Origin: Candidatus Binatus sp.
Lineage (GTDB): Bacteria > Desulfobacterota > Binatia > Binatales > Binataceae
Direction: 5' to 3'
Length of the DNA stretch: 64,000 nt
Assembly (NCBI RefSeq): GCF_030646925.1
Contig: NZ_JAUSKL010000024.1
Span: forward strand, 1 to 64,000
A program made the translations under genes and the position numbers. Below the pieces are notes generated by a model that did not search any database, was not told the origin of the DNA, and saw only the letters and a list, made by a program, of their open reading frames with translations. Below are positions 53,299-57,734 of the stretch, one piece after another. Each line of letters starts with the position of its first letter. The stretch's first letter is position 1.

Positions 53299-54696
53299 TC
53301 AGCGTTTTTTCGGCTTGGTCTTTCGCCAAGCGGCTTTTCCACCGATAGTTTTTCCGGGAACCGGTTCAATCAGTCCGCGATCCTTGAGAGATAGGAACAC
53401 GCTTTTCATTGAATTTTCCGATCGGATACCGGTCAGGTCGCGCGCTATCATGTTTGTTATTTCGTCATTGTTTTCCAGGTAAGCGATAACCGTGTCATGA
53501 GCCGAAGCCAAAGGAGTGTGCCGAATATTGATCGTCACCGAGTGCTCGCTTTCCTCGATGACCGGTTCCTTTAGCCTCAATTTTTTCATTGCCTCGAAAG
53601 CGGTATTCAATCCCTCTCCAACGTCCTTGTTCGGAGCGTCCGGAAACTTGTTGATTAACCGGACGATCTTCGGATTCCGAGCCGATTGCTCATCCAAAAT
53701 ATTCTCTTTGGTTACATGACCCGGAAGCCGACCGGGGCTCTCAACTTCGATGCGATTGTCATATATCCGCACTTGAACATCGGCTGCGATGCTGTAGTCC
53801 CTATGCAGGACCGCATTCGTAATGATCTCGTGAAGCGTCTCGTGCGGATAGGTTACCGACTCCAAGCCGTTCGGTCCTAAACGGTTGATACCTTCGACCA
53901 ATTTCTTGGTTCTCGCGACCGCTTCTCTAATCTGCTGGTCTAGTGGCCCTTCGATCGTCAGAGGATCAAACGCTAACGATTCGCGATTTCCCTCGGCCTC
54001 CTTGGTCTTGTATCTGAAAAGTTTGATCGCCGACCGCTTCGGAAGTGCAGCCTGTGGCTCGTCGGCAAAGAGGAGAAGACCGGCCACCGTGGGTTTTCCT
54101 TCAGCAACGAGATTTTGCTTTGCGATCCACGTATCCGGCTCTCCAGTAGGCACAACATTCAGCATGAACTCAATGATCGCAACCGAATTGGTTATCAGCT
54201 TCGGATCCAGGTTTAGGGTTTCGTCCTCGAACGATACAATGCCCTTATCCAGTCGCAGCCGGTGCAGAGCCTCTTCGCCTTTGACCGACTGTTTTTGAGC
54301 ACCGCGACGGACATAGGCGACGCCGTCGCTCGCGTACAAGATATCCTTTGTCTTGAAAATTATAAGTTGTAGTACGTAGCCGGAACGCCCATCAGCCGCC
54401 AGAAAGGTCGCTCGGTAATGCGTTCCCAAGGGCGACATCGCCTCAATTACCTGAATGTGGTTGTTCGCCTCCTCGACATCAGAAAATCCACGCCAGTGAC
54501 GTATCTTTCTGCCGTTATGATCCGCTTCATCGATGCCAATGAAGAGTTCTCCACCCGCAGTGTTCGCGAATGCGGAGACAGCTTCCGTCAGTTTCGCGGG
54601 CGCTATGTCGGCGCTTTTGAGGTCTAGATAGTGACTTTCCTCTAAATCAAGAATGCGCTTCGATTCAGCGTCGTCGATTCTAATCTGTTCAATCAT
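53299..54696 (-). CDS. Schlafen/AlbA-type ATPase-like DNA-binding protein
   Basis: The 465-residue protein has an N-terminal AlbA_2 (Schlafen-like) domain: ESHYLDLKSADIAPAKLTEAVSAFANTAGGELFIGID at about 20-56 and YVRRGAQK near 129. A HATPase_c_4-type domain includes ETLHEIITNAVLHRDYSIAADVQVRIYDNRIEVESPGRLPG. A C-terminal winged-helix part ends in a basic tail (KKPKKR-like). Members include regulators, helicase-associated factors and candidate defence proteins. G+C is lower than in the flanking permease gene. Confidence 0.82.
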   Translation of the reverse strand: MIEQIRIDDAESKRILDLEESHYLDLKSADIAPAKLTEAVSAFANTAGGELFIGIDEADHNGRKIRHWRGFSDVEEANNHIQVIEAMSPLGTHYRATFLAADGRSGYVLQLIIFKTKDILYASDGVAYVRRGAQKQSVKGEEALHRLRLDKGIVSFEDETLNLDPKLITNSVAIIEFMLNVVPTGEPDTWIAKQNLVAEGKPTVAGLLLFADEPQAALPKRSAIKLFRYKTKEAEGNRESLAFDPLTIEGPLDQQIREAVARTKKLVEGINRLGPNGLESVTYPHETLHEIITNAVLHRDYSIAADVQVRIYDNRIEVESPGRLPGHVTKENILDEQSARNPKIVRLINKFPDAPNKDVGEGLNTAFEAMKKLRLKEPVIEESEHSVTINIRHTPLASAHDTVIAYLENNDEITNMIARDLTGIRSENSMKSVFLSLKDRGLIEPVPGKTIGGKAAWRKTKPKKR

Positions 54697-54920: not shown

Positions 54921-54928
54921 AACTCTCC
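54921..54928 (+). repeat. Target-site duplication, left copy
   Basis: AACTCTCC directly precedes the left inverted end and recurs exactly at 57655-57662 after the right end. Eight bases is the expected duplication length for IS1595-family elements. Confidence 0.9.
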
Positions 54929-54952
54929 GGGGATTAGTAGGATGTTGACACC
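54929..54952 (+). repeat. Left terminal inverted repeat of IS1595-family transposon
   Basis: The 24-base end begins GGGGATTAGTAGGATGTTGA and is a perfect inverted match to 57631-57654. Confidence 0.95.
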
Positions 54953-55046
54953 ACTAGAAATAGCGAGCATTCTGAGCAGGACGTGACAGGCCGCAGCGAT
55001 TTGGGGTATGCTACTTTCCCTTGGCGGCGATCAAAAGGCGAATATC

Positions 55047-55862
55047 GTGATAAACGACTGGCAACCAAATGATCGCGATATGACGCTGACCCTTCATGGG
55101 CTTGACGTGGACAACGGAAAAGTTCGGGCCGATGTGTTCGCCGTCAAATTCCGAGCGCTGCTTTCCTCCCTAAGAGCAGCCGACAAATTTGCTAACAGAA
55201 AGAAATCTCACGAATACGTTATTGAGACAGCACAAGGAGGGAGCATATATACCGCCGTCCGAGAGCGAATAAGTGTCAAGAAGCGGATACCAGCGCCAAG
55301 CATCCCTGTGATGCGAGACGCCTTGATGGCGGTTTACAACGGCGAACAAACTGTCGAGAGATTTCCCAAAGGCATTATTGATAACATCCGGTTAATAGCC
55401 AAGGATGCCGGAAAGAAATTCTCGCACGGCGAAGTTGGCACAAAAGACAATCTCGTACGAATAGATGACTATCTCGTCAAACAGGTGAGCAAAGCTGAGG
55501 AACGCATATTAGGAACTGGACTCATTAAGCCACGTCGGCACTTCGAGGGCATATCCTTCGGAACGTTCGATGGCATCGTGAAGGAAATGGACGCTCGCGG
55601 ACAACTGGTCAGAGGAAAACTGATCTTGACTGCCGGTGAGAAGGAAATCGATTGCATTTTCCGTAGAGACGATCTGCCGACTCTAAAGCTGAGCTTCGAC
55701 CTTCGCGCTCGGGTCGAAGGAATGGCCCACTACGACGGCGAATCTCTGTTACCAGTGCGGCTAGATGTCAGGCGGATAGCAGTCACAGAGGAAGCAGCAG
55801 ATTTGCTGCGTTGGAGAAAAGCGCTTGCGCATAAGAGAGGGCGGCGAAAGGACCCTTTTTGA
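55047..55862 (+). CDS. Uncharacterised partner of the PIN protein
   Basis: The roughly 271-residue protein starts near MTLTLHGLDVDNGKVRADVFAVKFRALLSSLRAADKF and has a central mixed region and a beta-rich C-terminal part (FEGISFGTFDGIVKEMDARG, DLRARVEGMAHYDGES). I do not recognise the family. I chose the GTG at 55047 because AAAGGCG lies upstream; ATGs at 55008 and 55080 are alternatives. Its TGA touches the PIN gene's ATG, so the two are translated together. It could be an antitoxin or effector partner. Confidence 0.7.
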   Translation: MINDWQPNDRDMTLTLHGLDVDNGKVRADVFAVKFRALLSSLRAADKFANRKKSHEYVIETAQGGSIYTAVRERISVKKRIPAPSIPVMRDALMAVYNGEQTVERFPKGIIDNIRLIAKDAGKKFSHGEVGTKDNLVRIDDYLVKQVSKAEERILGTGLIKPRRHFEGISFGTFDGIVKEMDARGQLVRGKLILTAGEKEIDCIFRRDDLPTLKLSFDLRARVEGMAHYDGESLLPVRLDVRRIAVTEEAADLLRWRKALAHKRGRRKDPF

Positions 55863-56450
55863 ATGCCTAATGCGCCGACTAACTTGTTCTGGGACTCTTG
55901 CGTATTCGGAGCATTACTGTACGACGAAATCGACGTATACGACCTAGCCAGCATTGAACAGTACCTTAAAGAAGCGAAAGACGGGCGACACAAGATTTAT
56001 ACATCCTCGATCATCTTCGCTGAAATCGCAGATAGTAAGATCAAAAAGACAGGCATCGGTTCTATTGGGGATTTGATTAACGATTTCATTGGCTCGACGG
56101 TTCCCATCGATCCATCTGTCAATATTATGACATTGGCGGGTCGTCTCAAGGACATTAAATATCGAAAAGGTGAATCTAAGAATCGTCACCTAGGAACAGG
56201 TGATGCGATCATGCTCGCGACGTGTCTCTACCTAGAGGACGCCATGGGCGTTAAGGCTGATTTCTTTCACACCTTCGATAATGGGAAGGGACCTAAGAAA
56301 GAGGTCCCACTTTTAAGTTATCACGAATGGTGTGAGGGCCTTTCTGGCGAGAAAGATCAGCTTGCTCAACGAGTATGTTCTCTAAAGAGGCAACAGCCGA
56401 TTCATCCAGCGCCGCCACTTCCCCTAGGACCACCCTCTACTGCTACTTGA
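55863..56450 (+). CDS. PIN-domain ribonuclease-like protein
   Basis: The 195-residue protein has the four acidic PIN residues in order: Asp11 in LFWDSCVFG, Glu54 in SSIIFAEI, Asp114 in GTGDAIMLA and Asp139 in FHTFDNGKG. PIN domains are Mg-dependent RNases, often VapC-type toxins. The product is longer than the usual 130-140-residue VapC and has a Pro-rich tail. It begins directly at the stop of the upstream gene. As transposon cargo it could serve as an addiction or defence module. Confidence 0.88.
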   Translation: MPNAPTNLFWDSCVFGALLYDEIDVYDLASIEQYLKEAKDGRHKIYTSSIIFAEIADSKIKKTGIGSIGDLINDFIGSTVPIDPSVNIMTLAGRLKDIKYRKGESKNRHLGTGDAIMLATCLYLEDAMGVKADFFHTFDNGKGPKKEVPLLSYHEWCEGLSGEKDQLAQRVCSLKRQQPIHPAPPLPLGPPSTAT

Positions 56451-56628
56451 CCGTGCCGGACCTGTGTGGCCCGGCCTTCCTTGATTTCTCAGCAGCATCA
56501 ATCTTTTCTTTCGGAACGTGTACCAGGTGCCGCATCATGCGGTCGAACTCGCCCATGTCTGCGTTTGCGAGTTCTTCGCGGGCGTCTTTGGTCTTTTCTT
56601 TGATCGCCGGTGAGTCTGACTTTGCCAC
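56443..56628 (-). CDS. Small charged hypothetical protein
   Basis: The 61-residue, Lys/Glu-rich protein (SPAIKEKTKDAREELANADM, then EFDRMMRHLVHVPKEKIDAA) is predicted helical. Its stop overlaps the convergent PIN gene end by 8 bases. It follows the transposase gene on the same strand after a 39-base gap. It may be an accessory protein or small antitoxin-like protein; I do not recognise it. Confidence 0.6.
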   Translation of the reverse strand: MAKSDSPAIKEKTKDAREELANADMGEFDRMMRHLVHVPKEKIDAAEKSRKAGPHRSGTVK

Positions 56629-56667
56629 GCTTGAATTTTAGCGCGGCAACGCTCACGCGGCTAGCGG

Positions 56668-57600
56668 CTACGCGTTTGATATGAGTTCAGCAAACGGATC
56701 ATCATCGTGCCGCCGGTTATGGCGGAACGTGAACTCGCTCAAATACAGAGGCAGATAGTCGCGGGACATCTTGTGATACGTGCCCATGACGCCGCGCCGC
56801 AGGAGCGACCAGAACGACTCGATATTCTGCGTGTGCACCTTGCCGCGCACGTATTCTTCTCGCTTGTGCGTGACGATCTCATGCGGGAATCCGAGCGAGC
56901 GCAGGTGCCGATAGCGGAACGTCTCATCGGTCGCGATCAGGTTCACTCGACCGGATACGGTCTTGCGCACGAAATTGTCATACGTGCTGAAATCCGCTTC
57001 CTCGACCATTTGGCACACGATGTTGCCTTTGCGGGCGATGGCTCCGATCACTTCGGTCTTGCCTTGCGAAGCCCAATTGCCGACGCGCTTGCCCTTGTGC
57101 TTGTTCTTTTCCTTGCCGCCAAGATAGACCTCATCGATCTCGACTTCGCCCATTAGCTGTTCCCATTCAGAATCCCGCATCGCGCCGCGAAGTCTCATGC
57201 ACTGGCACCAAGTCGTGTGGTAGTTATCGAGATGCTTCGAGCCGAACATCATGCGATGCAGTTGCAACGCGCTGATGCCCTTTTTCGAGACCAGCATCAG
57301 GTAGCCGATTTTGAACCACGACACGAGCGGGCGCTTGGTGTTCTCGAATACCGTGTGCGTGATGACGCTGAATCGATAGCCGTTCTTTTTGTTGCAGGTC
57401 AGAACTTCGCCCGTCGATTTGTTCACGCTCTCTTTGCCGCTCTTGCATACCCAATTGAACGGGCGAGCCTTTAGCTCGTAAACCTTGTCGTGGCCACAGC
57501 GCGGGCATTTCACGCCATCGGGCCAGCGCATCTTTTTCAGATACTCGCGGCAAGCGTTCTCGTCCGGGAAGCGTTTATCGAATGCGTCTTGTGTCTGCAT
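56668..57600 (-). CDS. IS1595-family transposase
   Basis: The 310-residue transposase has an N-terminal zinc ribbon (CPRCG at 32-36, then Cys52 and Cys69). The DDE-type core has Asp156 in VEIDEVYLGGKEKNKH, Asp225 in LIATDETF, and Asn259-x-Glu261 in HTQNIESFWSLLRRG. Length and motifs indicate an intact enzyme. Its start lies 31 bases inside the right inverted repeat's inner edge. It catalyses cut-and-paste movement of the element. Confidence 0.95.
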   Translation of the reverse strand: MQTQDAFDKRFPDENACREYLKKMRWPDGVKCPRCGHDKVYELKARPFNWVCKSGKESVNKSTGEVLTCNKKNGYRFSVITHTVFENTKRPLVSWFKIGYLMLVSKKGISALQLHRMMFGSKHLDNYHTTWCQCMRLRGAMRDSEWEQLMGEVEIDEVYLGGKEKNKHKGKRVGNWASQGKTEVIGAIARKGNIVCQMVEEADFSTYDNFVRKTVSGRVNLIATDETFRYRHLRSLGFPHEIVTHKREEYVRGKVHTQNIESFWSLLRRGVMGTYHKMSRDYLPLYLSEFTFRHNRRHDDDPFAELISNA

Positions 57601-57630
57601 GATGAGGATAACTTAGCGCGTTACGTGCTC

Positions 57631-57654
57631 GGTGTCAACATCCTACTAATCCCC
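57631..57654 (-). repeat. Right terminal inverted repeat of IS1595-family transposon
   Basis: It is a perfect inverted match of 24 bases to 54929-54952 and is followed by the second AACTCTCC at 57655-57662. Confidence 0.95.
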
Positions 57655-57662
57655 AACTCTCC
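57655..57662 (+). repeat. Target-site duplication, right copy
   Basis: AACTCTCC, identical to 54921-54928; it marks the edge of the transposon insertion. Confidence 0.9.
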
Positions 57663-57674
57663 TGAACTTTCATA

Positions 57675-57690
57675 CGTTTCACGTGAAACA
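57675..57690. promoter_or_regulatory. parS-like ParB binding site 1
   Basis: CGTTTCACGTGAAACA matches the chromosomal parS consensus TGTTTCACGTGAAACA at 15 of 16 bases, with the full 14-bp palindrome intact. Confidence 0.92.
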
Positions 57691-57704
57691 TCTCGACCAC
57701 AAAA

Positions 57705-57720
57705 TGTTTCACGTGAAACG
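57705..57720. promoter_or_regulatory. parS-like ParB binding site 2
   Basis: TGTTTCACGTGAAACG matches parS at 15 of 16 bases. It is 30 bases from site 1, on the same helical face within about one-sixth of a turn, and overlaps the region just after the glycosyltransferase gene stop. Confidence 0.92.
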
Positions 57721-57734
57721 TTTCTCGCTCGTCC

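What the first reader, a model, noticed from the sequence alone, without database searches (positions are those of the whole stretch)
54921..57662. Complete IS1595-family transposon carrying a PIN-domain gene pair
The sequence shows 24-bp perfect inverted ends, an exact 8-bp duplication (AACTCTCC) and an intact-looking transposase. The left half is filled by two directly joined genes (TGA touching ATG) and one small gene. IS1595 elements are known to carry passengers in some subgroups; a PIN nuclease with an uncharacterised 271-residue partner would be an unusual cargo. It may be an addiction or anti-phage module that rides a transposon.
Basis: partly seen in the sequence, partly recalled or inferred. 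Interest (0 to 1): 0.9.

Follow-up and report, generated by a model that had tools for sequence, protein, structure and literature searches.

The report
Jumping gene carrying a toxin-like pair
A small complete bacterial transposon carries a nuclease-like gene joined to a partner of unknown family, and some distant bacteria carry a related pair in related transposons, which suggests a mobile self-preservation or anti-virus module, although nobody has tested what it does.

Summary
Window 54929-57654 is a 2726-bp IS1595-family element with 24-bp perfect inverted ends, an exact 8-bp target duplication and an intact-looking transposase. Its left half is a two-gene cargo: a 271-284-aa partner (ORF1) and a 195-aa PIN protein with all four catalytic acids. 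Queries with ORF1 or PIN, never with the transposase, found distant homologues. An IS1595 transposase, whole or decayed, lies beside ORF1 in 9 of 17 assessable loci; eight of the nine have inverted ends and target duplications. The other eight loci lie among phage genes, in a conjugative region, beside methylases or elsewhere. ORF1 matches no NCBIfam family and only scattered weak Pfam models; its C-terminal part is predicted as an OB fold. In the window's class, 47 of 48 delimited IS1595 elements are long enough for cargo, of many kinds, including Panacea, PIN_10-DUF433 and GmrSD genes. Most likely this is a toxin-antitoxin-like PIN module, for maintenance or phage defence, on an IS1595 chassis whose ends look like inward promoters. 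Function is inferred, not shown. IS1595 elements and toxin-antitoxin pairs in other transposons are known; I found no report of this combination in one open-access library.

The parts
54921..54928 (.). left copy of the 8-bp target duplication AACTCTCC
54929..54952 (+). left terminal inverted repeat, 24 bp, with an inward-facing TTGACA box
55008..55862 (+). ORF1, partner protein, 284 aa from the first ATG (271 from GTG at 55047; homologues suggest about 55080); predicted OB fold at residues 178-264; no Pfam hit for this member and no NCBIfam family
55863..56450 (+). PIN-domain protein, 195 aa, acids D11, E54, D114, D139; starts directly after the ORF1 stop
56443..56628 (-). 61-aa lysine/arginine-rich small ORF behind the transposase, of a kind recurrent in IS1595 elements
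56668..57600 (-). IS1595-family transposase, 310 aa
57631..57654 (-). right terminal inverted repeat, 24 bp, with an inward-facing TTGACA box
57655..57662 (.). right copy of the target duplication AACTCTCC

Best explanation
54929-57654 is a complete IS1595-family transposon. Its chassis is the inverted ends, the transposase and a small basic ORF; its cargo is a closely coupled partner-PIN pair. I read the pair as a toxin-antitoxin-like module. The PIN protein is a metal-dependent nuclease, probably an RNase like VapC. The upstream ORF1 protein binds it and holds it off, using a C-terminal OB fold to bind either the PIN protein or nucleic acid. Loss of the element, or phage attack, would tip the balance, so the pair stabilises the element or protects its host. 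Promoter-like boxes inside the inverted ends would transcribe the cargo from one end and the transposase from the other. Shown by sequence: the transposon, its ends, the pair, its conservation and its recurrence in IS1595. Inferred: nuclease activity, toxicity, neutralisation by ORF1, expression from the ends, and the benefit.
For: Ends, duplication and transposase. Related pairs in IS1595 elements with 8/8 target duplications: Roseomonas marmotae plasmid, a Rhodospirillales MAG, G347 and G447, G965; also G863, frameshifted transposase, 6/8. Four acids invariant in 16 of 16 PIN proteins; ORF1 directly upstream in 16 of 16, spacing -14 to +5 bp with the starts I chose. Pfam PIN matches 8 of 11 family members, best 7.6e-15; the PIN model resembles VapC structures (rows with probability mostly 1.00, E from 9.8e-3). 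ORF1 residues 178-264 match OB folds, Z up to 9.9. The pair is also in two virus-collection contigs, a conjugative region and beside DNA methylases (contexts read by eye), usual places for TA and defence genes. Other IS1595 elements of this genome or its class carry Panacea, PIN_10-DUF433, GmrSD and RelA/SpoT-type genes. Inward -35-like boxes at 94 of 108 element ends against a shuffled mean of 14.5, maximum 27.
Against: No activity is shown. The window's PIN protein alone gives no Pfam hit at E up to 1; its model is middling (pLDDT 63) and no PDB match reaches E 1e-3. ORF1 is about three times the length of usual VapB antitoxins (recalled) and has no recognised antitoxin domain; its N-terminal residues 1-123 are below pLDDT 50. 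In the window's own class the only other pairs found, in 2 of 148 genomes, are not beside IS1595. The pair is rare: 2 further genomes in 395 of the phylum with the broader profile. The window's own ends have only 3 of 6 matches at the -10 position. No PADLOC model matches either protein.
Confidence: 0.62

Rival explanations
1. Anti-phage module rather than addiction: ORF1 is a sensor, its OB fold recognising phage nucleic acid or a DNA-binding protein, and it switches on the PIN nuclease during infection; the transposon merely spreads it.
For: Pair present in two virus-collection contigs among phage genes and beside DNA methylases in three loci (read by eye); other IS1595 cargo includes GmrSD/HEC-06 restriction and a weak Pycsar-type membrane hit; ORF1 is larger than a usual antitoxin.
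Against: No PADLOC model hits the pair; no infection data; the predicted OB fold shows no function; no control set shows that IS1595 cargo is enriched in defence genes.
Confidence: 0.3
2. The pair belongs to the transposition machinery: PIN cuts transposase mRNA or ORF1 binds single-stranded ends, limiting or aiding movement.
For: Nine of 17 assessable ORF1 loci sit beside an IS1595 transposase; in five elements the transposase, ORF1 and PIN run in one direction as a likely operon (L012, L032, L120, L121, L143).
Against: In the window and L013 the pair lies at the other end and converges on the transposase; eight loci have ORF1 without IS1595; the IS1595 elements surveyed here mostly carry other genes.
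Confidence: 0.1
3. Selectively neutral hitchhiker: IS1595 elements pick up adjacent genes at random and the pair means nothing to the element.
For: Cargo is very diverse, and in the window's own class the only other pairs found were not in IS1595 elements.
Against: Related ORF1-PIN pairs recur in elements whose transposases are only 25-36% identical between window, Roseomonas and MAG (the G863 transposase is closer to the Roseomonas one, 54-63%, and the other transposases were not compared), with all catalytic acids kept; random capture would hardly repeat this.
Confidence: 0.08

Closest known systems
IS1595 family of insertion sequences
   Same: DDE_Tnp_IS1595 domain, N-terminal zinc ribbon, 8-bp duplications, inverted ends (family features from passages of PMC8101967)
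   Different: Members are described as having a single transposase gene (passages) and listed as 700-1287 bp in a Ralstonia survey (passages of PMC7371123); this one is 2726 bp with cargo. Siguier et al. [quoted passage not shown] that it treats passenger genes is recalled.
Toxin-antitoxin pairs of Tn3-family transposons (Lima-Mendez et al. 2020, PMC7157771)
   Same: TA pairs, some with PIN toxins, carried inside transposons and acquired repeatedly (passages read)
   Different: Another transposase family; no resolvase among the genes scanned here; there the antitoxins belong to named families, here the partner belongs to none found.
VapBC type II toxin-antitoxin systems
   Same: PIN protein with four acids, partner gene upstream, overlapping or abutting
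   Different: Partner about 250-290 aa with a predicted OB fold, not a small DNA-binding VapB (the VapB size is recalled).
Cargo of Tn7-like transposons (Benler et al. 2021, PMC8649781)
   Same: Transposons loaded with TA and defence genes (abstract read)
   Different: The IS1595 elements delimited here are 1.1-3.5 kb with one transposase and usually one to three other genes (the latter by eye).

Membership tests
IS1595 family | DDE_Tnp_IS1595 domain | tested here: met
   E 1.1e-36 over the whole profile; NF033547 E 2.4e-47
IS1595 family | N-terminal zinc ribbon (all groups but IS1016) | tested here: met
   Zn_ribbon_IS1595 E 7.9e-14, residues 12-54
IS1595 family | 8-bp target duplication | tested here: met
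   AACTCTCC on both sides
IS1595 family | terminal inverted repeats | tested here: met
   24 of 24
IS1595 family | transposition activity | not testable with these tools
   no experiment; single whole copy in its genome
VapBC toxin-antitoxin | PIN-domain toxin | tested here: met
   PF01850 in 8 of 11 relatives; VapC-like fold for the window's model, no match below E 1e-3; not by Pfam on the window protein itself
VapBC toxin-antitoxin | conserved acidic active-site residues | tested here: met
   D11, E54, D114, D139 in 16 of 16
VapBC toxin-antitoxin | small VapB antitoxin with a DNA-binding domain (recalled definition) | tested here: not met
   ORF1 about 250-290 aa; none of 11 members matches an antitoxin family in Pfam at E up to 0.1 (three weak hits, each in one member, to unrelated families) or any NCBIfam family at E up to 0.01
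VapBC toxin-antitoxin | toxicity neutralised by the partner | not testable with these tools
   needs expression assays
Tn3-type TA passenger | TA pair beside a resolvase gene | tested here: not met
   none of the element's four genes is a resolvase by Pfam; the longest other ORF, 149 aa, is antisense to the transposase and was not scanned; a res site was not searched for
known anti-phage systems (PADLOC) | match to a system model | tested here: not met
   no hit at E up to 1 for ORF1, PIN, small ORF or transposase

The most novel reading that the evidence does not exclude
IS1595 elements form a widespread class of minimal cargo transposons: a fixed chassis (promoter-bearing inverted ends, one transposase, one small basic accessory protein) with an exchangeable bay for TA and defence genes; the ORF1-PIN pair, a load that recurs across distant lineages, is a new toxin-antitoxin type whose antitoxin is an OB-fold protein.
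Probability: 0.45. Interest if true: 0.78.

Novelty: new variant of a known kind. Interest (0 to 1): 0.62.

Why it matters
If true, very small one-transposase elements usually thought of as simple insertion sequences would be a carrier of toxin-antitoxin and defence genes in little-studied bacteria, delimited to the base by their ends and duplications. That gives a route to new defence genes (read what lies between IS1595 ends) and a testable new PIN-partner family.

Tried and rejected
Chance ends: rejected. A loose rule for ends (8/8 duplication with 14 of 24 in the repeat, or similar) was rejected because mismatched flanks passed it in 102 of 203 trials; the strict rule passed 2 of 134. Under the strict rule 21 of 69 loci gave no element, among them three of the window's own genome (L056, L057, L059); several of the 21 have a contig end close by. 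A precise empty site in the genus was not found: relative G020 has the flanking genes adjacent without the element, but also lacks the neighbouring Schlafen/AlbA gene, so it is only a locus without the element.

Searches without a result: ORF1 in phage records, PDB sequence searches (only weak unrelated rows or none), small ORF in plasmids, window transposase in plasmids at 1e-50, L121 ORF1 in plasmids, first viral scan, NCBIfam for ORF1, PHROGs (one weak hit in one member). Repeat viral scans found the same two contigs; L030 ORF1 in plasmids found Roseomonas again, as did L017 ORF1. The genome-contig scan gave one locus. ORF1's N-terminal fold could not be tested, as its model is poor there. 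G243 (weak hit; no match) was dropped. G796 has the coordinates of the R. marmotae hit and was not counted again. In one search I left out 18 of the 76 cargo ORFs, mostly as likely antisense or spurious, and added the 2 window proteins. One search does not tell how many of the 60 proteins lack any hit.

Literature: searches. 31 papers hold both IS1595 and toxin-antitoxin (15 listed) and one holds IS1595 and PIN domain (PMC6211672); I did not open these and judged them by title and start of abstract. Passages were read of PMC7157771, PMC12548467, PMC7371123, PMC11092175, PMC12888890 and PMC8101967, and the abstract of PMC8649781. Subscription papers and preprints are mostly not held, so this is weak evidence of absence.

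Full report
Observation. The element is as described. Two perfect 24-bp inverted repeats (54929-54952, 57631-57654) are flanked by AACTCTCC on both sides and occur nowhere else in the window with up to three mismatches. The transposase has the complete IS1595 DDE domain and the zinc ribbon. ORF1 (55008-55862, + strand) abuts the PIN gene (55863-56450, + strand); a 61-aa ORF (56443-56628, - strand) lies behind the transposase and overlaps the PIN end by 8 bp. Only one whole copy exists in its genome.

The cargo pair. ORF1 and PIN gave no Pfam or PADLOC family on their own, and NCBIfam only one hit far below its cut-off for ORF1. In plasmids each found one record, the same one: Roseomonas marmotae p1318-1, where both genes lie beside an IS1595 transposase. 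The element there has 20 of 24 matching end positions and an 8/8 duplication TATCTTTA. A Rhodospirillales MAG gave a third element (24 of 24, TAAATTTT); joining its flanks gives one 467-aa frame across the site. Two IMG/VR contigs carry the pair among phage genes without a transposase (phage genes by eye). Searches of genomes added G077 and G004 through the PIN protein, G626, G889, G863, G652 and G694, G347 and G447, and G925, G965, G1122 and G1013 through ORF1 profiles. The pair is rare: 3 of 148 genomes of the class with the PIN protein, own included; 3 of 395 of the phylum with the broad ORF1 profile, own included; 7 of 395 in the order of the MAG; 4 of 240 in its class; 3 of 42 in the class of G447, the centres included. 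These searches score only a limited number of candidates per genome.

Tally. Of 18 distinct ORF1 loci, one (G925) is cut by a contig end. Of the other 17, nine lie beside an IS1595 transposase: window, Roseomonas, MAG, G863 (frameshifted), G652 (fragments), G347, G447, G965, G1013 (fragments). Eight do not: the two virus contigs, a conjugative region (G626, traG and relaxase by eye), three beside DNA methylases (G889, G077, G004, by eye), G694, and an island with an integrase (G1122, by eye). In G652 and G1013 no PIN gene was found. The two virus contigs came from a virus-only collection. No query contained the transposase. A rough background of 0.1% of loci within reach of a transposase follows from the 129 rows in 145 genomes; even at 1% the chance of 9 or more of 17 is 2e-14, if loci were independent, which they are not fully. 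Eight of the nine have ends and duplications that pass the strict rule: window, Roseomonas, MAG, G347, G447 and G965 with 8/8; G1013 7/8; G863 6/8. Gene order differs: transposase-ORF1-PIN in one direction in five elements, pair and transposase convergent in the window and the MAG. The transposases are 25-36% identical between the window, Roseomonas and MAG elements; that of G863 is 54-63% identical to the Roseomonas one. The MAG pair is 74% (ORF1) and 77% (PIN) identical to the pair of virus contig L017, while the six pairs compared with the window's are 32-47% identical to it, so the pair changes vehicles.

What the proteins are. The four PIN acids are invariant in 16 of 16 and ORF1 is directly upstream in all 16, -14 to +5 bp with the starts I chose. 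Pfam PIN matches 8 of 11 members, not the window protein. The model (pLDDT 63) resembles PIN structures: best row E 4.6e-3, VapC rows from E 9.8e-3, none below 1e-3, probability mostly 1.00. ORF1 (pLDDT 53 overall, 73-86 per ten residues over 181-260) has a C-terminal OB fold, Z up to 9.9 to PriB, with SSB and other OB folds in the list; a shared fold shows no function. None of 11 ORF1 members matches NCBIfam, and Pfam gives three weak hits, each in one member.

The vehicle. The window's genome has 14 rows of transposase matches. I delimited IS1595 elements in 69 loci with a transposase: 59 of 60 stretches fetched for 60 of the 121 rows outside the own genome, chosen by me (one stretch missed its gene; one held three genes, of which the best was used), plus 10 from the own genome. 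The strict rule found ends in 48 of 69, against 2 of 134 mismatched flanks. Lengths are 1124-3526 bp, median 2312; 47 of 48 are 1631 bp or longer with at least one further ORF of 60 aa or more, and one (L098, 1124 bp) is a bare IS. Some of the ORFs will be spurious. Among 58 cargo proteins scanned with the window's two, Pfam found DUF3800 (5), SocA_Panacea (2), DUF4145 (2), Trypsin_2 (2) and single cases of GmrSD, RelA_SpoT, DNA methylase, HNH, PIN_10, DUF433 and others, 23 families in all; PADLOC, with 25 of 54 families shown, gave HEC-06, methylases and PDC candidates. No control set of random genes was scanned, so enrichment for defence genes is not shown. The closest transposase (69%, G019, L060) carries other cargo.

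Two chassis features recur. A small ORF with a basic tail was found at E below 0.05 in 25 of 54 elements, seven of them seeds of the profile, against 2 of 2595 flanking ORFs; the profile was grown only from ORFs inside elements, which favours the inside. A TTGACA-like box facing inward lies in 94 of 108 ends (base-shuffled mean 14.5, maximum 27), followed by a -10-like box of 4 of 6 or better in 64 (shuffled mean 1.7, maximum 6); the ends are related to each other, and the window's two have the -35 box but only 3 of 6 at -10. These are consensus matches, not measured promoters.

Mechanism and comparison. I favour a TA-like module in which ORF1 restrains a PIN nuclease, borne by an IS1595 chassis; the defence reading is the main rival and the two can overlap. 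It works like VapBC, but I do not file it as VapBC, since the partner is not a recognisable VapB. Tn3 transposons carry TA pairs beside the res site (passages of PMC7157771), and Tn7-like transposons carry TA and defence genes (abstract of PMC8649781); IS1595 does not occur in the main text of the former. IS1595 members are described as having a single transposase gene (passages of PMC8101967).

Novelty. The transposon family and TA cargo in other transposons are known. The ORF1 family, its recurrence in IS1595, and the frequent cargo of IS1595 in this class I did not find in the library searches listed under Tried and rejected, most of whose papers I saw only as listings.

Noticed in passing
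L038, L054, L055, L058 (own genome): Other IS1595 elements of the same genome carry a PIN_10-DUF433 pair, a SocA_Panacea gene with a 138-aa neighbour, a membrane protein with a weak Pycsar-type hit, and a GmrSD/HEC-06 restriction gene.
   Followed up: partly
IS1595 elements, e.g. window 56443-56628: A small basic ORF (42-78 aa in the matches) recurs in IS1595 elements and may be an accessory of transposition.
   Followed up: partly
ends of 54 IS1595 elements: Inverted repeats carry inward-facing promoter-like boxes, at both ends in 42 of 54 elements.
   Followed up: partly
L120:7077-7700 and L102:2964-3518: ClpP-like protease genes as IS1595 cargo in two distant elements, in L120 beside the ORF1-PIN pair; both assigned by eye, L102 consistent with the single Pfam CLP_protease hit.
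   Followed up: no
window 53299-54696: Schlafen/AlbA_2 plus HATPase_c_4 protein directly beside the element, with PADLOC matches to pAgo-type models; absent at this locus in relative G020.
   Followed up: partly
window 57674-57721: Palindromic TTTCACGTGAAAC repeats just outside the right end; similar short copies are scattered in the genus.
   Followed up: no
L112:5256-6500: A DNA methylase as IS1595 cargo, assigned by eye and consistent with the single Pfam N6_N4_Mtase and the PADLOC methylase hits.
   Followed up: no
L143:4620-5060: The small IS1595 ORF appears fused to a longer C-terminal part (146 aa), read by eye.
   Followed up: no
L012:4803-8575: The Roseomonas element appears to split an IS30-like transposase gene, read by eye.
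   Followed up: no
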